From contig JBBIVP010000088.1 of NCBI GenBank assembly GCA_037439705.1, positions 1 to 8,523 of the forward strand: a stretch of DNA of 8,523 nt, read 5' to 3'. The DNA is from JBBIVP01 sp037439705 [NCBI: bacterium]. Its GTDB lineage: Bacteria > JBBIVP01. Positions 1,042 to 8,523 of this stretch are shown here, in pieces. How positions within the stretch are numbered: the stretch's first letter is position 1; each line of letters starts with the position of its first letter. The notes under the pieces were generated by a model, which saw only the letters and a list, made by a program, of their open reading frames with translations, made no database searches and was not told where the DNA came from. Position numbers and translations under genes: made by a program.

Positions 1042-1617
1042 ATGCTAAAACCTTTTGAACATGAAGGTGTGAAATGCGTAAAATGTGGCACTGAAGTGGA
1101 TGGGAAAGTTCTTTACTGGGTTCATTTCTATCTTTTTAAAGGGATATTGTTTGATAGCGTGTGTCCGAACATTTCTAATGAAGTGGCTGAGTTTGCTTTA
1201 CAAAGCAATGTAAAAACTATCCTGGTGACGCACTATCACGAAGACCATATAGGTGGTGCCATAGCTTTACAAAGGATGGTACCTGTTTTTGCTCCAAGAA
1301 AATCTATTGATATTCTTTTTAACCCTCCGAACATTCCGGAATACCTAAAAACAGTCTGGGGACAGCCAGCATCATTAAAAGCGAAACCTTTAGATGAAAT
1401 TAATCTTGAAGATATTAAGGTGATGGAAACACCAGGACATACTTTTGACCATACTTCTTTTCTTGTGGAAGATAGAGTTTTCGCCGGAGACCTGATCATC
1501 AGGCCGGGACAGATGGTCATTTTCTTGACTTTTACTTTTTACAATTTTAGAATCAATTTAAAACATAAAAAAGGGAGTTTAAAATGGCTGTGCAAAAAAT
1601 CAAAGAGGGGATTTTAG
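1042..1617 (+). pseudogene. MBL-fold metallohydrolase, 3'-truncated; frame runs into the fprA promoter
   Basis: The first ~160 codons are a clear metallo-beta-lactamase fold. They hold the HxHxDH metal motif as THYHEDHIGG (about residues 63-72), the third histidine in ETPGHTFDH (about 129-137) and the bridging aspartate in VFAGDL. After GDLIIRPGQMV (near 1520) homology stops. The remaining ~30 codons (IFLTFTFYNF..., ending in a run of K/R) are non-coding sequence read through: they span the -35/-10 promoter and Shine-Dalgarno of the flavodiiron gene and overlap its first 34 nt. Family members usually continue for another ~70-80 residues with a GHG motif that gives the last metal ligand; that is missing. 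A KCVKC pair near the N-terminus is unusual and may be incidental. The residual protein is probably inactive. A small stand-alone protein is less likely. Confidence is high for the fold and moderate for loss of function. Confidence 0.75.
1525..1553 (+). promoter_or_regulatory. Sigma70-type promoter of the flavodiiron/rubrerythrin operon
   Basis: TTGACT at 1525-1530 and TAGAAT at 1548-1553 are separated by exactly 17 bp; each differs from consensus at one position. Transcription would start near 1560, giving a leader of about 24 nt before the Shine-Dalgarno AAGGGAG (1571-1577) and the ATG at 1584. It lies inside the read-through 3' end of the truncated MBL frame. No FNR-, PerR- or NsrR-like palindrome was recognisable around it. 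Confidence 0.7.
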
Positions 1618-2771
1618 CGGTAGGGGTTCGACACTGGGAGAGAAGACTTTTTGATGAATTAATTCCCCTTCCTGATGGGACCAGCTATAATTCTTACCTT
1701 GTAATAGGTTCTGAAAAGGTCGCGCTTATAGACACTGTAGATCCTTCAAAAACAGAAAAACTCGTCGCAAATCTGAAAGAGGCAGGAGTGGAAAAAATAC
1801 ACTTTATAGTTGCCAACCACGCAGAGCAGGACCATTCTGGTTCTGTTCCTGAAATTCTTTCCCTATATCCAGAATCAAAGGTGGTGACAAATGAAAAGGG
1901 CAAAACTTTTCTTTCGGACCTTTTGCATATTCCTGATGAGAAATTCATAACTGTTAAAGATGGGGAAACAATAAAGCTCGGAGGAAAGACCCTAAAATTT
2001 GTTTTTACACCATGGGTTCACTGGCCTGAAACAATGGTAACTTTTCTTGTAGAAGAAAAAATTTTATTTTCCTGTGATTTCTTCGGCTCCCATTACGCAA
2101 CTTCTTCACTCTTTGCCCGAGGAGATGAAAGAATTCTTGAAGATGCCAAAAGATATTATGCAGAAATCATGATGCCATTCAGGGTTCAGATAAAGAAAAA
2201 TATTGAAATTGTTGAATCACTTTCTCCCGAAATTATTGCTCCAAGCCATGGTCCGGTTTGGAGAAATCCGTCCTTTATAATTAATGCATATAAAGACTGG
2301 GTTTCTGAAAATTTTGAAAATAAAGTTTTAATTCCCTATGTATCCATGCATGATAGCACAAAAAAAATAGTAGATTATCTTACAGATTTGTTGATAAAAC
2401 TTGGAATAGAAGTAAAACCATTCAGCCTTCCTTTTGTGGATATTGGTGAATTTGCGATAGAAATTGTTTCTGCCCCAACAATTGTGATAGGAACACCCAC
2501 TGTCCTTGCAGGTGCTCATCCAGTTGCTATTTACGCTGCTTATCTTGTGAATGCATTAAGACCAAAGTTAAAATTTGCAAGTGTAATAGGCTCCTACGGA
2601 TGGGGCGGTAAAGCAGTAGAGCATATTCAGGCGCAACTTTCCAGTCTTAAAATTGAATTTCTTGAACCTGTCTTAATCAAGGGTTTACCCAGCGAAAAGG
2701 ATTACAGTTCGTTAGATAAACTTGCCAGTCTTATTCTTGAGAAACATAAAGAGATTGGATTAATAAAGTGA
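1584..2771 (+). CDS. fprA: Flavodiiron protein (A-type: MBL diiron domain + flavodoxin domain)
   Basis: This cytoplasmic enzyme reduces O2 to water and/or NO to N2O at a diiron centre, using FMN and electrons from a rubredoxin-type donor. The 395-residue length is that of the minimal two-domain class. The MBL domain has the full ligand set: H79-x-E81-x-D83 in [10 protein letters not shown]146 in WVHWPETM, D165 in SCDFFGSH and H222 in APSHGPVWR. The C-terminal flavodoxin domain (about 248-390) shows the phosphate-binding loop SMHDSTKKI, the [11 protein letters not shown] loop and GSYGWGG, all expected FMN contacts. O2 versus NO preference cannot be read reliably from motifs. It is the first gene after the promoter at 1525 and has a Shine-Dalgarno AAGGGAG six bases before the ATG. 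The rubredoxin domain of the next gene's product is a candidate electron donor, since no separate rubredoxin is present here. Confidence 0.95.
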
Positions 2772-2784
2772 AGAAGGTGCTAAA

Positions 2785-3315
2785 ATGAAAAAGATGACAG
2801 AAAAATCCCTGTCTGAAGCCTTTGCTGGTGAGTCAATGGCTCATATAAAGTACCTCATTTTCAGTGAAGTGGCTGAAAGTGAAGGCTTTCGGAATGTGGC
2901 TCGTCTCTTTAAGGCAATAGCATTTGCTGAATTTGTCCATGCCAAAAATCATGCTAAAAATCTTGGATATGGAAAAAGCACAAGAGAAAATCTCCAGAGT
3001 GGTATAGATGGTGAAAATTTTGAGGCTACAGAGATGTATCCTGCTTACAATGCTATCGCAGAGCTTCAGGATGAAAAGGATGCAAAGCTTTCAATACATT
3101 ATGCCCTTGAAGCAGAAAAAATTCATGAACAGCTTTACAGAATTGCAGAAGAAAATGTGGCCATAAATAAAGACATTGAAATGAAAGAAATCCATATATG
3201 CCCTGTCTGCGGATATACTTACATGGGAGAAAAACCACCTGAAAAATGCCCTATTTGTGGTGTATCTAAGGAAAAATTTGTGAAGTTTCGATTAAATTTG
3301 AAAGGGAGGAGATAG
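2785..3315 (+). CDS. rbr: Rubrerythrin (diiron peroxidase with C-terminal rubredoxin domain)
   Basis: The product reduces hydrogen peroxide to water in the cytoplasm, a main peroxide defence in anaerobes. The N-terminal ferritin-like four-helix domain (about residues 1-130) supplies diiron ligands E16 in FAGES, E49/H52 in EFVHAKNH, E83 in TEMYP, and the E-x-x-H pair E111/H114 in AEKIH. The C-terminal rubredoxin-like domain binds one iron through C139-P-V-C142 and C155-P-I-C158. At 176 residues it is slightly shorter than the ~190-residue Desulfovibrio type but complete. The ATG follows GAAGGTG closely and lies 13 bp after the flavodiiron stop. The TAG stop abuts the ATG of the next gene with no spacer, so it is part of the operon. 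It probably receives electrons from NAD(P)H via a rubredoxin reductase not seen here. Confidence 0.95.
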
Positions 3316-4646
3316 ATGGAATACCCATTCTGGTATGTCCCATTTATTGGCTCTCCAATGTTAATTCCCGGGGTTGCCCTTTTACATGTCATTGTTTCCC
3401 ATTTCGCTGTTGGCGGAGGAATCCTTTTGTGGCTTGGAATTACAAAAGCATACAAACAAAATGACAGAGAATTTCTTAATTATTTAAAATCCCTTACACG
3501 ATCGGAGCCATAACAGGAGTTGGTATATGGTGGACAATAGGTTTGTCCAGCCCTCAGGCAACCTCAACTCTCATACATACCTTTGTATTTGGATGGGCTA
3601 CTGAGTGGGTGATGTTTGTAATTGAACTGGCCTCAGCCTTTGGGCTTTTCTATTTCTGGGATAAATTTTCGCAAAACTCTCATAAAACTGTTGCTTTCAT
3701 CTATGCCATTTTCGCATGGCTTTCTCTTGTAGTTATATCTGGTATAACAAGTTTTATGGCCACAAGTGGCAAGTGGATTGAGACCAAAAATTTCTGGTAC
3801 GGATTTATAAACCCAACATTTTTACCCACTATTGTAACAAGAACCGGTGGAGCACTGGCAATTTCTTCTCTCTACATTCAGCTCCATCTAAGTTTTTATA
3901 AAGCCCAAGAAAGCGTAAAGAAAAATGTAATAAAGTGGACAAGCAGATGGGGAATAGTTGGCTTCATATTGGTAAGTCTGGGAGGTTTGTGGTGGTTTGG
4001 AGTAGTTCCTGATTTTATAAAAATAAAAGTTCAGACTGCTACTGTTGTAATAATTTTCATTACAATTGTAGTGTTTTTAATAATCGCTTTATCTTTAACA
4101 TTGATTGCAGGACCCATAAGAAATCCCGCCTGGCTCTCACCACCACTCTCTGTTCTCTTACTGGTTCTTGGAGCAGGAGGAATGGTGGCAGGAGAATTTA
4201 TAAGGGAAGGAACAAGAAAGCCCTATGTGATAGAGGAATATCTTTATTCCAACAACATTTATTCTGACAGAGTGGAAAATATAAGGGAAAATGGGTATCT
4301 GAACGAGGCAAAATGGGTAAAATTTTACCTATCAAAAATTGTTCCAGGGCTATATAAAGAGGACGGAAAGGTTAATGAAGATAAAATTGAAAACTTATCG
4401 GACTCAGAAAAATATCTAATAGGAGAATCTATCTTCCATCATCAATGTGGTACATGCCATACAACCCGTGGTTACAACGGAATTTTAGATAGACTTAAGG
4501 GAATTGACAGGGAACTTCTTCATGAAATGATTAAAAATCTTGATGGGGTGAGTAATGCTATGCCTCCATTTGCTGGTAAGGATTGGGAGATTGATGCTTT
4601 AACAGAATATTTTGAAAAATGGCATACTAAGGAGGTGGTAAAATGA
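3316..4646 (+). pseudogene. Cytochrome bd-superfamily subunit I with C-terminal cytochrome c domain (OR-C-like), frameshifted
   Basis: Two reading frames together encode one multi-helix membrane haem protein. Frame one (3316-3513, 65 aa) gives the N-terminus with LHVIVSHFAVGGG in helix 1; H24 probably corresponds to the active-site haem histidine of CydA. The continuation lies in the -1 frame, open from 3480 to the stop at 4646, starting IGAITGVGIWW, then IHTFVFGWATEWVMF with a helix glutamate, and REGTRKPYVI, which resembles the conserved E-x-G-R-x-P-W segment of CydA. After the last helix a periplasmic cytochrome c domain follows: CGTCH haem site (codons 4446-4460) and AMPPFAG as likely axial Met. 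There is no CydA quinol loop, so electrons probably arrive through haem c. About nine residues at the start of helix 2 seem missing relative to relatives as I remember them, which fits a ~25 bp deletion. The TTG at 3543 is not a credible start. Confidence 0.72.
3483..3489 (+). other. T TTA AAA slippery heptamer in the frame overlap of the cytochrome gene
   Basis: In the upstream frame the codons read TAT TTA AAA TCC, so T TTA AAA fits the X XXY YYZ pattern for -1 ribosomal slippage. The downstream coding frame is exactly the -1 frame; it opens after a TAA at 3477-3479, and the upstream frame stops at 3511-3513, so the heptamer lies in a 34-nt overlap. A possible 5-bp hairpin (CCATA 3508-3512 with TATGG further on) lies about 18 nt downstream, too far for an ideal stimulator. 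No internal Shine-Dalgarno was seen upstream. The heptamer may be chance in AT-rich DNA. Confidence 0.35.
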
Positions 4647-5734
4647 CCCCAATTCCTTCCTTTGACCCATTGGGACTACCTGCTCCAGCAGTAGTAAATC
4701 TTGTTCTTAAAGTCTTCGGGTTCTGGGTTCACTGGTTCTTTATGGGGATGTGGTTTAGTGGTATGTTAATTTCTCTAATCCTGATCAGATTAAACAATGA
4801 AACTCTCTCAATTACTGGCTGGAGAATTCTCAAAACCATGCCTGTTTTCATTGCCTTTGGCGTAAATGCTGGAATTGTTCCTCTTCTCTTTATCCAGGTC
4901 CTTTTTCCCAACTTCTTTTATCCTTCCACAATTCTTCAAGCCTGGTTCTGGTTTACCATCCTGGGTTTTCTTCTTGTTGCCTATTACGGAATTTACTATT
5001 CAATTTTTAATTTTGAAAAGAATAAACTTCTCGCCTACGGAACTGGCTGGATATCTTCTTTTATTTTTCTAATGCTTGGTCTGATTTTTTCCAGTGAAAT
5101 GAAATTAATGGTCTCTCCAGATTCATGGTATAAATATGTTTCTTTTGGACCGGGCGGAACAATATTAGGAATAGCACTTGCCATTTCTCCTCAATCAATT
5201 CTCAGATATTTTATAGTATTTGGTCTTTCCACAGTGAGTCTTTCCGGATATATTTTATTTGATAATTATTTCATTAAAGGAGAAACACAATTAAAAGAGG
5301 AAGTCAAAAAATTGTCTCTCGGGCTAATGATTTTGGGAATTATAATATTTGGGCTCTCTGCTTTAAAATATCTCGGGTACATTAACCCTTATCTGAAGGA
5401 TTTTGTTTTGTGGAAATATCTGCCCGGAGTTCTGCCTGTGCTTACCCTTATAATGGCGATTATGTTTTATCTAAAACCATCAAAAACTTTTTCTCTTCTC
5501 ATATTTCTTGGAGCTCTAATCTCTTTGCTCGTCAACAGCATCTCAAGACAGATAGTACAGATCAAAGAGTTAGAACCATTTTTGAAAATCAAACATTTGC
5601 CTTTAAGAATACAGCTTTCACCTATCTTGCTATTTCTCATTACTCTGATTATCGGACTTTTTGTACTCGGATATCTATTAAAAGTTTATTTTATAGAAAC
5701 AAGGAGGTGTAGAAATGTTCTACAAGGTTCATGA
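4643..5734 (+). CDS. Integral membrane partner subunit of the cytochrome bd-like/cytochrome c complex
   Basis: This 363-residue, very hydrophobic protein has about eight or nine transmembrane segments (roughly residues 15-48, 66-88, 100-121, 134-151, 187-208, 225-244, 258-277, 282-300 and 326-348). The N-terminus, DPLGLPAPAVVNL followed by FGFWVHWFFMGMW, resembles the second membrane subunit paired with cytochrome c-containing members of the bd superfamily. H30 in the first helix is a candidate haem ligand. No cytochrome c motif, quinol loop or soluble domain is present. It overlaps the preceding gene by four bases (ATGA) with GGAGGTG at 4631-4637, so it is translationally coupled to the haem c subunit and probably forms a heterodimer with it. 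If that subunit is broken, this intact gene would be orphaned. It could be described as a CydB/CydA-prime analogue; the exact family name is not certain. Confidence 0.72.
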   Translation: MTPIPSFDPLGLPAPAVVNLVLKVFGFWVHWFFMGMWFSGMLISLILIRLNNETLSITGWRILKTMPVFIAFGVNAGIVPLLFIQVLFPNFFYPSTILQAWFWFTILGFLLVAYYGIYYSIFNFEKNKLLAYGTGWISSFIFLMLGLIFSSEMKLMVSPDSWYKYVSFGPGGTILGIALAISPQSILRYFIVFGLSTVSLSGYILFDNYFIKGETQLKEEVKKLSLGLMILGIIIFGLSALKYLGYINPYLKDFVLWKYLPGVLPVLTLIMAIMFYLKPSKTFSLLIFLGALISLLVNSISRQIVQIKELEPFLKIKHLPLRIQLSPILLFLITLIIGLFVLGYLLKVYFIETRRCRNVLQGS

Positions 5735-6824
5735 AATTGGTAAAAGGTTTTATCTTTTAAGAAGTGATGAACCGGACTTTCACAGAAACATTTATGTAAA
5801 AATCTTCAAAAATGGTAATAAAACTGTAAATATGATTATGGACCCAGGGTCAAGACTTGATCTTGAACCTCTTACTAACTCTCTTGAAGAGCTAATTGGA
5901 GGAATAGATAAAATAGATATAATATTTTTATCTCATCAGGACCCTGATGTCTCTTCGTTGACTCCACTCCTACTGTCAATAGCCCAAAAAGCCATTGTTC
6001 TTACCTCACAGGATACCATAAGGTTGATAAAAATGTATGGAATACCAGAGAACAGACTAAAATCTGTAGAAGATTTAAAAAGTGAAACAGTCAAAATAAA
6101 GGATACAGGGCACAGAATAAAAATTATTCACGCATATTTCTGCCATTTCAGGGGAGCCATTATGTGTTATGACATTGAAAGTAAAGTCTTATTCACAGGA
6201 GATTTTATGGGAGGTCTTAATACCGTAGAGGGGAAGCCCGTATATGCCACTGAAAAAGCCTGGGATGGAATACTTTTATTTCATACAATCTACATGCCAT
6301 CTAATCTGGCCCTCAGAAAAACAATTGATAGAATAGGGCTTTTAAATCCATTTCCGGAGGCCATAGCTCCTCAGCATGGATATGTTGTGAAGTCCGACCT
6401 CGTTGTGGAATTCATGAGCAGACTTTCTCAATTAAATGTCGGTATGGACCTTCTTACTTCCAAAGAACCAACTCATGAACAATTTCTTCTTGCCATAAAC
6501 GATTTTAAAGAGAAGGTTAAAAAGGATTACCCAGATATTTATCCAAAAATTTATGATAGAATAAGAGCACCTGGAAGTTTCACTTCTCCGTTTATTATGA
6601 AGGGAGATGAAATAGTCCAGACAAAAATTCTCCCATCTGACGCTTTAAGTTTCGTCCTTAATGTTCTTGAAGATGAAACTGAAGGACCTGAATTATCAAA
6701 ATTAAAGACACTTCTTTTGCTGAGTTTAGAAAAGTTTAATGTTTCTCATCTTCTTCATATGCTTCCACCAGAAGATGTCAATGGTAAACCGTTGGATATC
6801 AGTGATATTTTTGGAGAAGAATAA
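5715..6824 (+). CDS. Flavodoxin-less diiron MBL protein, ODP-like (oxygen-binding diiron family)
   Basis: The 369-residue product has the diiron metallo-beta-lactamase core of flavodiiron proteins without the flavodoxin half. Ligands are H74-x-D76-x-D78 in LSHQDPDVSS, H144 in FCHFRGA, D163 in TGDFMGG and H221 in APQHGYV. The first acidic ligand is Asp rather than the Glu of the flavodiiron protein upstream, as in ODP-type proteins that bind O2 in chemoreceptor systems. The last ~130 residues (about 240-369) are charged and helical, contain DYPDIYPKIYDRIRAPG, and match no domain I recognise. Lacking FMN, it would need an external electron donor to act as a reductase, so O2/NO binding or sensing is a reasonable inference. 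The ATG has AGGAGG at 5702-5707 and lies inside the previous gene, overlapping it by 20 bp, which implies tight co-expression with the membrane complex. Confidence 0.85.
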   Translation: MFYKVHEIGKRFYLLRSDEPDFHRNIYVKIFKNGNKTVNMIMDPGSRLDLEPLTNSLEELIGGIDKIDIIFLSHQDPDVSSLTPLLLSIAQKAIVLTSQDTIRLIKMYGIPENRLKSVEDLKSETVKIKDTGHRIKIIHAYFCHFRGAIMCYDIESKVLFTGDFMGGLNTVEGKPVYATEKAWDGILLFHTIYMPSNLALRKTIDRIGLLNPFPEAIAPQHGYVVKSDLVVEFMSRLSQLNVGMDLLTSKEPTHEQFLLAINDFKEKVKKDYPDIYPKIYDRIRAPGSFTSPFIMKGDEIVQTKILPSDALSFVLNVLEDETEGPELSKLKTLLLLSLEKFNVSHLLHMLPPEDVNGKPLDISDIFGEE

Positions 6825-6835
6825 AAATTAAAAAT

Positions 6836-6841
6836 GGAGGG
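6836..6841 (+). promoter_or_regulatory. Shine-Dalgarno GGAGGG of superoxide reductase, pointing at an ATA codon
   Basis: GGAGGG is followed by TTAAA and then ATA AAA GAA CTG. The spacing of five bases is right for initiation at 6847, exactly where homologous proteins begin M-K-E-L, but the codon is ATA. The ATG at 6834-6836 overlaps this site, is in another frame and stops after three codons. Confidence 0.6.
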
Positions 6842-6846
6842 TTAAA

Positions 6847-7236
6847 ATAAAAGAACTGATTCAGACAGGTGACTGGAAGGCAGAAAAACATGTCCCTTCC
6901 ATAGATGTGATCGGGTAACCCAGGAAAGGTGAAAAAGTTGAGCTCAAAGTTGGAGTGGAAAAAGAAATTCCACATCCCAACACCTCTGAGCATCACATAA
7001 GCTGGATAGAGGTTTATTTCCATCCTGAAGGGGAAAAATTTCCTTACCTCCTTGGAAGGTTTGAGTTTGTCTCCCACGGTGAATCAACCCAGGGACCAAA
7101 TACATCCACTGTTTACTCTGAACCCTGGGTAACAATAGTTTTTAAAACGGAAAAAAGCGGAACAATACACGCCCTCTCTTATTGTAATATTCATGGTTTA
7201 TGGGGAAATTCTGTAGCTCTTAAAATTAAAGGCTAA
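6847..7236 (+). pseudogene. sor: One-iron superoxide reductase (neelaredoxin), start codon lost and interrupted by TAA
   Basis: Read through, the frame from 6847 encodes a complete ~129-residue neelaredoxin-class superoxide reductase, which reduces superoxide to peroxide in the cytoplasm. Fe-site residues are all visible: E and H in WKAEKHVP, two histidines in HPNTSEHHISW, a further conserved block HGES, and the Cys/His pair in YCNIHGLW. Two lesions interrupt it: the expected start is ATA (6847-6849), and TAA (6916-6918) replaces a residue between IDVIG and PRKGEKVE. Length across the TAA matches relatives, so it is a substitution and not an indel. The longest intact piece starts at GTG 6955 (93 aa) and lacks the first His ligand and the EKH segment, so it should not be active. 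TAA is the normal stop of the preceding gene, which argues against a reassigned codon. It is the last operon gene, 22 bp after the ODP-like gene. Confidence 0.88.
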
Positions 7237-7512
7237 TTAATTTATATTGTTTTAGGTGACAGCGGATAAATCGGGTGAGAAAGGGAAACTACTTTTCTTA
7301 TAGAATTAATTTTTCGCTCTTATATTGAAGATAATTGCTATATATCAATTTTTCGTGTCTACAGGGTGGATTACCTCTTTTTATTTTTTTTAAATCCTGA
7401 AACCTTTAAATCCTGCTTCTTTCACAGCAACTTCTGCTACCAAAATAGAAGCATTTTCATCTAGTTACACTTTTTCAACTTATGATCTTTTCTGTTTCAT
7501 CCGAAGAAACCT
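7237..7512. other. Convergent intergenic gap between superoxide reductase and norB
   Basis: No intact gene is visible. The 11-mer GAAACCTTTAA occurs at 7399-7409 and again at 7506-7516, the second copy covering the norB stop. TTTAAATCCTG is repeated at 7389-7399 and 7405-7415. On the minus strand 7390-7464 reads LDENASILVAEVAVKEAGF followed by KGFRI and TAA, which looks protein-like but is closed upstream by a stop; it may be the end of a lost gene. A TTGATA/TATAAG pair with an 18-bp spacer lies on the minus strand (7319-7348) but points into the broken gene and is not called as a promoter. Confidence 0.4.
7363..7391 (+). terminator. Possible weak intrinsic terminator of the plus-strand operon
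   Basis: AGGGTGGATTACCT can fold as a short bulged stem (AGG-T with ACCT) and is followed by a T-rich run, CTTTTTATTTTTTTT to 7391. The stem is only four to five pairs with few GC pairs, so termination efficiency is uncertain; the position, 127 bp after the last operon gene and before the convergent norB, fits. Confidence 0.3.
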
Positions 7513-8523
7513 TTAAGAACTTTCTTTACCAAGTTTGAAAAAGTTAATTACAAATATAACTGCTCCGATTAGGAACCCAACACCAAATATTCCTCTTAAT
7601 ATCCAGAACCAGAGGTTATAATTTGTCTTTACTGCTACATAATCAAGACCTACAACCCTCTCCATATATGTCTGAACTATTCCTGCTCCAGTAATTGTGA
7701 GCACAATAAATATCATTGAAATAGTCATCCACCAGAAAGACTGATAAACCCTTGATGTGGAGAATTCTTTTACTCCCCTTATCACTGGCAGGCTTACATA
7801 TATCATAGAAATAACGAGGAGAACATATGCACCATAGAAAGCAAGATGCCCATGGGCAGTGGTAATCTGAGTACCATGGGTCCATTTGTTAACCTGTGGA
7901 AGAGTATGTATCACTCCCCAGAGTCCTGCCCCTACAAAGTTAAATATAGCATGAGCTACAGCATAAAATAGTCCCACTTTGTTTGTGACTGTTCTGTATT
8001 CTCTTGTAGATCTGAAAGCATCCCAGACCATTACAATGAGAGGGATAGGTTCGAGAGAACTAAATATTCCTCCTATCCAGAGCCAGTATTCAGGAGTCCC
8101 TATCCAATAATAATGGTGACCTGTTCCAAGAATTCCTGTAAAGAGCACAAGTGCTACTTCTAAATACATCCATTTTTCCACCACATCCCTTGATACATTG
8201 ATGGTTTTCATAAGCATAAAAGCGAGGAGAGCTCCTGCTATGACTTCCCGAGCCCCTTCAACCCATAAATGAATAACCCACCACCACCAGTACTGGTCTT
8301 TTACCATATTTTTAGTGTAAAACATTACGGGGAGGTACATAAGAACGAGAAAGGTTAATCCGGCCAGAAGAGTACCTTGAATCCCTGTCCATTTTTTTGT
8401 TTTTATCACAGTAACAAAGTTGTTGATGAGAAATAGTATAGCTGAAATAGCAATCAGGATGTCTGCCCACCTGGGCGCTTCTATATATTCCCTTCCTTCA
8501 TTAAGTATCCCTGTTCCAAATAA
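7513..8523 (-). CDS. norB: Nitric oxide reductase catalytic subunit NorB, partial, N-terminus off the right edge
   Basis: NorB reduces two NO to N2O at a haem b3/non-haem iron site in the cytoplasmic membrane. The frame is open to the right edge (336 residues visible, first in-window residues LFGTGILNEGKEYIEAPRW), so an internal GTG at 8407-8409 is not the true start. Non-haem iron ligands are H85 in VIHLWVEG and H136/H137 in GTGHHYYW; the glutamates are E89 in the same VEG segment and E158 in FSSLEPIPL; the haem ligands are H224 and H226 in AHGHLAFYG. Spacings between these residues match the Pseudomonas cytochrome c-dependent enzyme (offset about 122), so about 120 residues, including the first haem-b histidine, are missing. 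Whether it is the cNOR or the fused quinol type depends on sequence beyond the edge. It converges on the O2-defence operon and so has its own regulation. Confidence 0.95.
   Translation of the reverse strand, partial: LFGTGILNEGREYIEAPRWADILIAISAILFLINNFVTVIKTKKWTGIQGTLLAGLTFLVLMYLPVMFYTKNMVKDQYWWWWVIHLWVEGAREVIAGALLAFMLMKTINVSRDVVEKWMYLEVALVLFTGILGTGHHYYWIGTPEYWLWIGGIFSSLEPIPLIVMVWDAFRSTREYRTVTNKVGLFYAVAHAIFNFVGAGLWGVIHTLPQVNKWTHGTQITTAHGHLAFYGAYVLLVISMIYVSLPVIRGVKEFSTSRVYQSFWWMTISMIFIVLTITGAGIVQTYMERVVGLDYVAVKTNYNLWFWILRGIFGVGFLIGAVIFVINFFKLGKESS

What the first reader, a model, noticed from the sequence alone, without database searches (positions are those of the whole stretch)
3477..3540. 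Cytochrome bd-like/cyt c gene switches to the -1 frame beside a T TTA AAA heptamer
The upstream frame ends at 3513 and the downstream frame opens at 3480; T TTA AAA at 3483-3489 lies in the 34-nt overlap in the right register and direction for -1 slippage, and the slipped product would read LNYLKIPYTIGAITGVG, still giving a plausible 19-residue helix 2. Against recoding, my memory of relatives has about nine more hydrophobic residues here, so a 25-bp deletion after TCC CTT ACA CG is an equally good explanation. The two readings predict different things: regulated production of a short peptide plus full enzyme, or a dead enzyme.
Basis: partly seen in the sequence, partly recalled or inferred. 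Interest (0 to 1): 0.6.

Follow-up and report, generated by a model that had tools for sequence, protein, structure and literature searches.

The report
Oxidase gene broken by small deletion
A gene for a cytochrome bd-like respiratory oxidase lacks 25 bases that nearly every relative compared here has, so it is split into two frames; the "slippery" motif beside the break is most likely a coincidence, and two neighbouring genes look damaged too.

Summary
The frame break is real in this record. ORF 3316-3513 (frame 1) and the frame-3 ORF 3480-4646 overlap by 34 nt, and T TTA AAA lies in register at 3483-3489. Together they encode one protein: subunit I of a cytochrome bd-like oxidase with a C-terminal cytochrome c domain. 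Of 67 non-redundant relatives aligned, 66 have exactly 25 nt more than the window between the two homologous parts. Frame-0 homology runs past the heptamer in 41 of 67 alignments and frame-3 homology starts at 3501-3504 in 52 of 67, so the break lies at about 3499-3503, not at the heptamer. Slippage would give a protein lacking eight residues of conserved transmembrane helix 2. The heptamer occurs at the same codons in a relative with an uninterrupted gene (L013) and in register in two intact window genes, at about chance frequency overall; no unusual structure follows it. The MBL gene (3' truncated) and superoxide reductase gene (ATA at the start position, in-frame TAA) are also broken. Verdict: a 25-nt deletion, most likely a recent pseudogene in a decaying oxygen-defence cluster; assembly error is the main rival. 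Programmed frameshifting is not supported. Ordinary.

The parts
3316..3513 (+). 5' part of the bd-like oxidase subunit I gene (65 aa: helix 1 and the stretch leading to helix 2), frame 1, ends at TAA 3511-3513
   Evidence: aligns to the N-termini of uninterrupted relatives; SD-like gggagg upstream
3480..4646 (+). 3' part of the same gene in frame 3: rest of helix 2, remaining membrane part, and C-terminal cytochrome c domain with CGTCH
   Evidence: PF13442 E 1.1e-6; up to 41% identity with full-length relatives; two of these match PF01654; homology starts at residue 8-9, i.e. 3501-3504, in 52 of 67 alignments
3499..3503 (+). site of the missing 25 nt; 5 nt stand where relatives have 30 nt
   Evidence: 66 of 67 relatives give exactly 25 nt
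3483..3489 (+). T TTA AAA, in register for -1 slippage; judged coincidental, made by Tyr-Leu-Lys codons
   Evidence: (same heptamer in uninterrupted L013)
4643..5734 (+). subunit II-like membrane protein, open frame; a relative lies beside subunit I in 14 of 18 loci compared
1584..2771 (+). flavodiiron protein (flavorubredoxin-like), open frame
2785..3315 (+). rubrerythrin, open frame; its stop codon abuts the oxidase ATG
5715..6824 (+). ODP (oxygen-binding diiron) family protein with C-terminal extension, open frame
6847..7236 (+). superoxide reductase (neelaredoxin) gene, broken: ATA at the start position behind GGAGG, in-frame TAA 6916-6918
   Evidence: (E 1e-48, homology in one frame on both sides of the stop)
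1042..1617 (+). metallo-beta-lactamase-fold gene, 3' truncated: homology ends near 1521
   Evidence: profile 17-156 of 196; relative in L085 has 270 aa

Best explanation
The two frames are pieces of one gene for subunit I of a cytochrome bd-like oxidase carrying a C-terminal cytochrome c domain. A deletion of 25 nt at 3499-3503 removed eight codons plus one base from the start of transmembrane helix 2 and put the rest of the gene in the -1 frame. Translation stops at 3513 after 65 residues, most of the membrane part and the cytochrome c domain are not made, and the oxidase is dead. The lesion looks recent, because the downstream frame is still open and its cytochrome c motif is kept. With the truncated MBL gene and the doubly broken superoxide reductase gene nearby, it fits relaxed selection on an oxygen/superoxide/NO defence cluster. 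Shown: homology, size and place of the missing DNA, and the lesions in the neighbours. Inferred: that the deletion is in the genome and not only in the assembly, its age, the loss of function, and the relaxed selection.
For: 66 of 67 non-redundant relatives (from 92 ORF hits at E<=1e-20) have exactly 25 nt more, and in all 67 a match to both pieces lies in one open frame; the exception to the 25 nt (L010) is remote and its first piece aligns only to residue 33. Frame-0 homology ends at residue 61-63 in 41 of 67 BLAST alignments (the heptamer's last codon is 58), while the frame-3 piece starts at residue 8-9 in 52 of 67, which puts the switch near 3499-3503. The missing positions are conserved: F 58/67, F 54/67, T 53/67, V 65/67. 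Two other genes in the window are broken. In a simulation the downstream frame took a median of 14 random substitutions before a stop appeared.
Against: No close relative was found (about 42% identity at best over the full downstream piece, higher only over parts), so the ancestral sequence and the exact breakpoints are not seen. No reads and no own genome are held, so an assembly error cannot be told from a true deletion. The 1.1 kb of downstream frame still open is also what a gene in use would show. In 26 of 67 alignments the first piece ends at residue 33-59, and in 14 of 67 the frame-3 piece starts already at residue 1-6; these do not themselves place the break downstream of the heptamer.
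Confidence: 0.79

Rival explanations
1. The 25 nt are missing only from the assembled record (assembly or sequencing error, or a minority strain variant); the gene in the organism is intact.
For: No reads or second assembly available. The rest of the gene is open and keeps its cytochrome c motif. A survey of frame breaks in prokaryotic genomes expects singletons supported by BLAST to be sequencing errors rather than true indels (PMC3711429, passages read).
Against: 25 nt is an unusual size for a sequencing error (general knowledge), no direct repeats of 8 nt or more are left around the site (a repeat of which one copy was lost would not show), and two neighbouring genes carry lesions of other kinds, while five other complete genes are open.
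Confidence: 0.18
2. Programmed -1 ribosomal frameshifting at T TTA AAA makes a 65-aa peptide plus a full-length oxidase.
For: The heptamer is in the right register and direction inside the 34-nt overlap; the slipped product is open to 4646; and bacterial elements that use frameshifting do not always use efficient motifs (PMC4066793, passage read).
Against: It explains the frame but not the 25 missing nt. The 67 relatives are uninterrupted here, and one has the same heptamer at the same codons (L013). Heptamers are at chance level. The downstream structure is ordinary (z -0.49). The most proficient E. coli heptamers are X_XX.A_AA.G (PMC4066793, passages; no value for U_UU.A_AA.A was seen). The product would lack eight residues of helix 2.
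Confidence: 0.02
3. The two pieces are made as separate polypeptides by reinitiation and assemble into a split oxidase.
For: The frames overlap and could be coupled.
Against: The first in-frame ATG/GTG/TTG of frame 3 is TTG at 3543, with no clear SD-like sequence before it, and it lies at the end of helix 2; together the pieces would lack most of that helix.
Confidence: 0.01

Closest known systems
Cytochrome bd oxygen reductase superfamily, OR-C type
   Same: Two relatives tested match PF01654 (E 9.4e-17 and 1.1e-16) and PF13442 at the C-terminus; a profile of ten relatives matches the bd oxidase subunit I of 5doq (E 4.9e-12); a second membrane subunit gene lies beside it in 14 of 18 loci
   Different: In the window the subunit I gene is broken; the clade within the superfamily was not tested by a tree
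Bacterial pseudogene by frameshifting deletion
   Same: Open frame in relatives, out-of-frame deletion, lesions in neighbouring genes
   Different: No intact close relative seen, so age and fixation are unknown
Programmed -1 frameshifting on X XXY YYZ heptamers (dnaX recalled; IS1 and IS3 families, PMC4066793, passages read)
   Same: Heptamer in register in an ORF overlap
   Different: No conservation of the frame break, no unusual downstream structure, 25 nt of coding sequence missing

Membership tests
Cytochrome bd-like oxidase subunit I with cytochrome c domain (OR-C type) | CydA-like membrane domain | tested here: met
   By way of relatives: PF01654 in the L052 and L001 proteins, 5doq by profile; the window pieces align to them but do not match PF01654 on their own
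Cytochrome bd-like oxidase subunit I with cytochrome c domain (OR-C type) | C-terminal cytochrome c domain with CXXCH | tested here: met
   PF13442 E 1.1e-6; CGTCH in the translation
Cytochrome bd-like oxidase subunit I with cytochrome c domain (OR-C type) | Placement in the OR-C clade of a tree | not tested
   No tree was built; the 2021 superfamily paper is not held
Programmed -1 ribosomal frameshifting | In-register slippery heptamer in the overlap | tested here: met
   T TTA AAA 3483-3489
Programmed -1 ribosomal frameshifting | Frame break and heptamer conserved in relatives | tested here: not met
   In all 67 relatives a match to both pieces lies in one open frame (in L010 the first piece only in part); 1 of 67 has T TTA AAA at the place and 1 has T TTA AAG, both uninterrupted. 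All are distant, about 42% identity or less over the full piece
Programmed -1 ribosomal frameshifting | Shifted product collinear with homologues | tested here: not met
   25 nt, eight codons plus one base, missing
Programmed -1 ribosomal frameshifting | Downstream stimulatory structure | tested here: not met
   Fold of 3490-3580 z -0.49; 54 of 200 shuffles fold at least as well; pseudoknots were not examined
Pseudogene | Disabling lesion relative to intact homologues | tested here: met
Pseudogene | Lesion present in the genome, not only in the assembly | not testable with these tools
   No reads, no own genome

The most novel reading that the evidence does not exclude
Low-level slippage at T TTA AAA, on top of the deletion, rescues a shortened-helix oxidase, so that a damaged gene stays in use by recoding.
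Probability: 0.02. Interest if true: 0.5.

Novelty: already known. Interest (0 to 1): 0.12.

Why it matters
It matters little: a slippery heptamer beside a frame break is easily taken for recoding, and here alignment to relatives points to a deletion instead. If the lesions are in the genome, the cluster records a lineage losing oxygen-consuming and superoxide-removing enzymes while its flavodiiron protein, rubrerythrin and ODP genes stay open.

Tried and rejected
Own-genome and relatives searches were not possible (no genome held). The search for related loci in viral contigs gave no relative. Plasmids: four distant homologues of the downstream piece and no near-identical DNA. PDB by sequence with the downstream piece alone: only weak cytochrome c matches, best E 0.21. 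Downstream RNA structure: nothing unusual. Rfam: no match. Promoter and terminator scan of 6700-7600: at chance level. Direct repeats of 8 nt or more around the break (3400-3600) as a trace of the deletion mechanism: none. The ODP protein as a marker of the cluster in ten of the genomes with an oxidase match: a match in 1 of 10, so the cluster as a whole is not shared there. A 24-residue minus-strand stretch within 7237-7512 that might be a gene remnant: no Pfam match. Paper search for ribosomal frameshifting with cytochrome bd: one paper, a Campylobacter Ribo-seq study, listing seen only; this does not show that nothing is in print. No structure prediction was run; helix 2 is placed by alignment to 5doq and knowledge of CydA.

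Full report
What is there. The window carries, on the + strand, an MBL-fold gene (1042-1617), a flavodiiron protein (1584-2771), a rubrerythrin (2785-3315), the split oxidase gene (3316-4646), a second membrane protein (4643-5734), an ODP-family protein (5715-6824) and a superoxide reductase gene (6847-7236). On the - strand lie part of a COX1-family protein (7513-8523, PF00115 E 9.3e-47), a helix-turn-helix regulator (453-839) and part of a short-chain dehydrogenase-like gene (2-436, named by inspection only). No genome is held for the window, so its organism is unknown.

Frame 1 ends at 3513, frame 3 is open from 3480, and T TTA AAA at 3483-3489 is in register for -1 slippage.

One gene, not two. 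In relatives the 65-aa piece and the frame-3 piece align to one uninterrupted protein. The two relatives scanned match Cyt_bd_oxida_I (PF01654, E 9.4e-17 and 1.1e-16) and Cytochrome_CBB3, and a profile of ten relatives matches the bd oxidase subunit I of 5doq (E 4.9e-12). A relative of window 4643-5734 lies beside subunit I in 14 of 18 loci compared (L001-L004 and L052-L065, counted); it was not found in L003, L004, L053 and L054, of which L004 ends close behind the gene.

The missing 25 nt. Relatives were sampled from four groups reached through L001-L004: 90 of 396 genomes, 27 of 197, 12 of 39 and 53 of 297 have a match to the downstream piece at E <= 0.001. Those lists concern the downstream piece only; some matches in them carry stops or lie in two frames at other places (G130, G517, G744, G533), and these were not fetched. 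Only the best matches became loci. From all loci then held, 92 stop-to-stop ORFs of 200 aa or more matched the downstream piece at E <= 1e-20, of which 67 are non-redundant, and all 67 also matched the 65-aa piece in the same open frame under lenient BLAST settings. In 66 of 67 the distance between the two homologous parts is exactly 25 nt longer than in the window. The exception, L010, is remote: its match to the first piece stops at residue 33 and it gives 43. Five nucleotides (3499-3503) stand where relatives have ten codons. The lost positions include strongly conserved ones (F 58/67, F 54/67, T 53/67, V 65/67) in what is helix 2 of CydA by alignment.

Why not slippage. First, slippage would change frame at the heptamer, but the frame-0 piece still matches relatives to residue 61-63 in 41 of 67 alignments and the frame-3 piece starts at residue 8 or 9 in 52 of 67. 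Against this, 26 of 67 first-piece alignments end at residue 33-59, and 14 of 67 frame-3 alignments start at residue 1-6, so the place of the break rests on the majority. Second, slippage would leave the product eight residues short in a conserved helix. Third, none of the 67 relatives has the break, and L013 has T TTA AAA at exactly the homologous codons in an uninterrupted gene (L048 has T TTA AAG): the heptamer is one way of writing Tyr-Leu-Lys in AT-rich DNA. Fourth, in-register slippery heptamers occur 11 times in 3921 nt of four intact window genes, two of them T TTA AAA, so about 0.1 would be expected in a 34-nt overlap; TTTAAAA occurs 12 times against 9.3 expected. Fifth, the RNA downstream folds no better than shuffles (z -0.49); pseudoknots were not examined. 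A survey of prokaryotic frame breaks requires a conserved site to call programmed frameshifting and treats most singletons as indels or errors, while allowing that an orphan gene may use recoding (PMC3711429, passages). In E. coli the most proficient heptamers are X_XX.A_AA.G, although genes that use frameshifting do not always use efficient motifs (PMC4066793, passages; no value for U_UU.A_AA.A was seen).

The surroundings are damaged too. The superoxide reductase gene aligns to solved superoxide reductases along one frame (E 1e-48; query typed with X at the stop), but has ATA at the start position behind GGAGG and an in-frame TAA at 6916-6918. The MBL gene's homology ends near 1521, covering positions 17-156 of the 196-position profile, where a 270-aa relative covers the profile to its end. 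The flavodiiron, rubrerythrin, subunit II and ODP genes and the helix-turn-helix gene are open. Three broken genes in one cluster fit relaxed selection better than one programmed signal; this is inference. The oxidase lesion seems recent: its 1140-nt downstream frame is open, while random substitution gave a stop after a median of 14 changes (90th percentile 44). That openness is equally expected if the break is only in the assembly.

Verdict. A 25-nt deletion, most likely a recent pseudogene (0.79), with an assembly or strain artefact as the main rival (0.18). Programmed frameshifting (0.02) and a split enzyme (0.01) are very unlikely. The first figure was 0.80 in the returned version and was lowered only so that the four add to one.

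Noticed in passing
window 6847-7236: Superoxide reductase gene with ATA at the start position and an in-frame TAA at 6916-6918, otherwise well conserved.
   Followed up: partly
window 1042-1617: MBL-fold gene whose homology ends near 1521; its 3' end seems to be missing up to the leader of the flavodiiron gene.
   Followed up: partly
window 5715-6824: ODP-family protein whose match to solved ODPs ends near residue 247 of 369, leaving a C-terminal extension of about 120 residues without a Pfam match at E 0.001.
   Followed up: no
L001 4737-7383; also L062 7429-10043 and L063 5378-7978: Two adjacent copies of the oxidase subunit I gene, both with matches to the window's two pieces, with a subunit II-like gene beside them.
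   Followed up: no
L003 4119-7358: A rubrerythrin frame lies directly upstream of an 866-aa subunit I-like frame, echoing the window's order.
   Followed up: no
G533:C130:4816-5936: A relative whose two matches lie in different frames with a break near query residues 178-194, at another place than the window's.
   Followed up: no
window 7237-7512: Stretch without a long frame, with a short open minus-strand piece (LDENASILVAEVAVKEAGFKGFRI) that might be a gene remnant; no Pfam match.
   Followed up: partly
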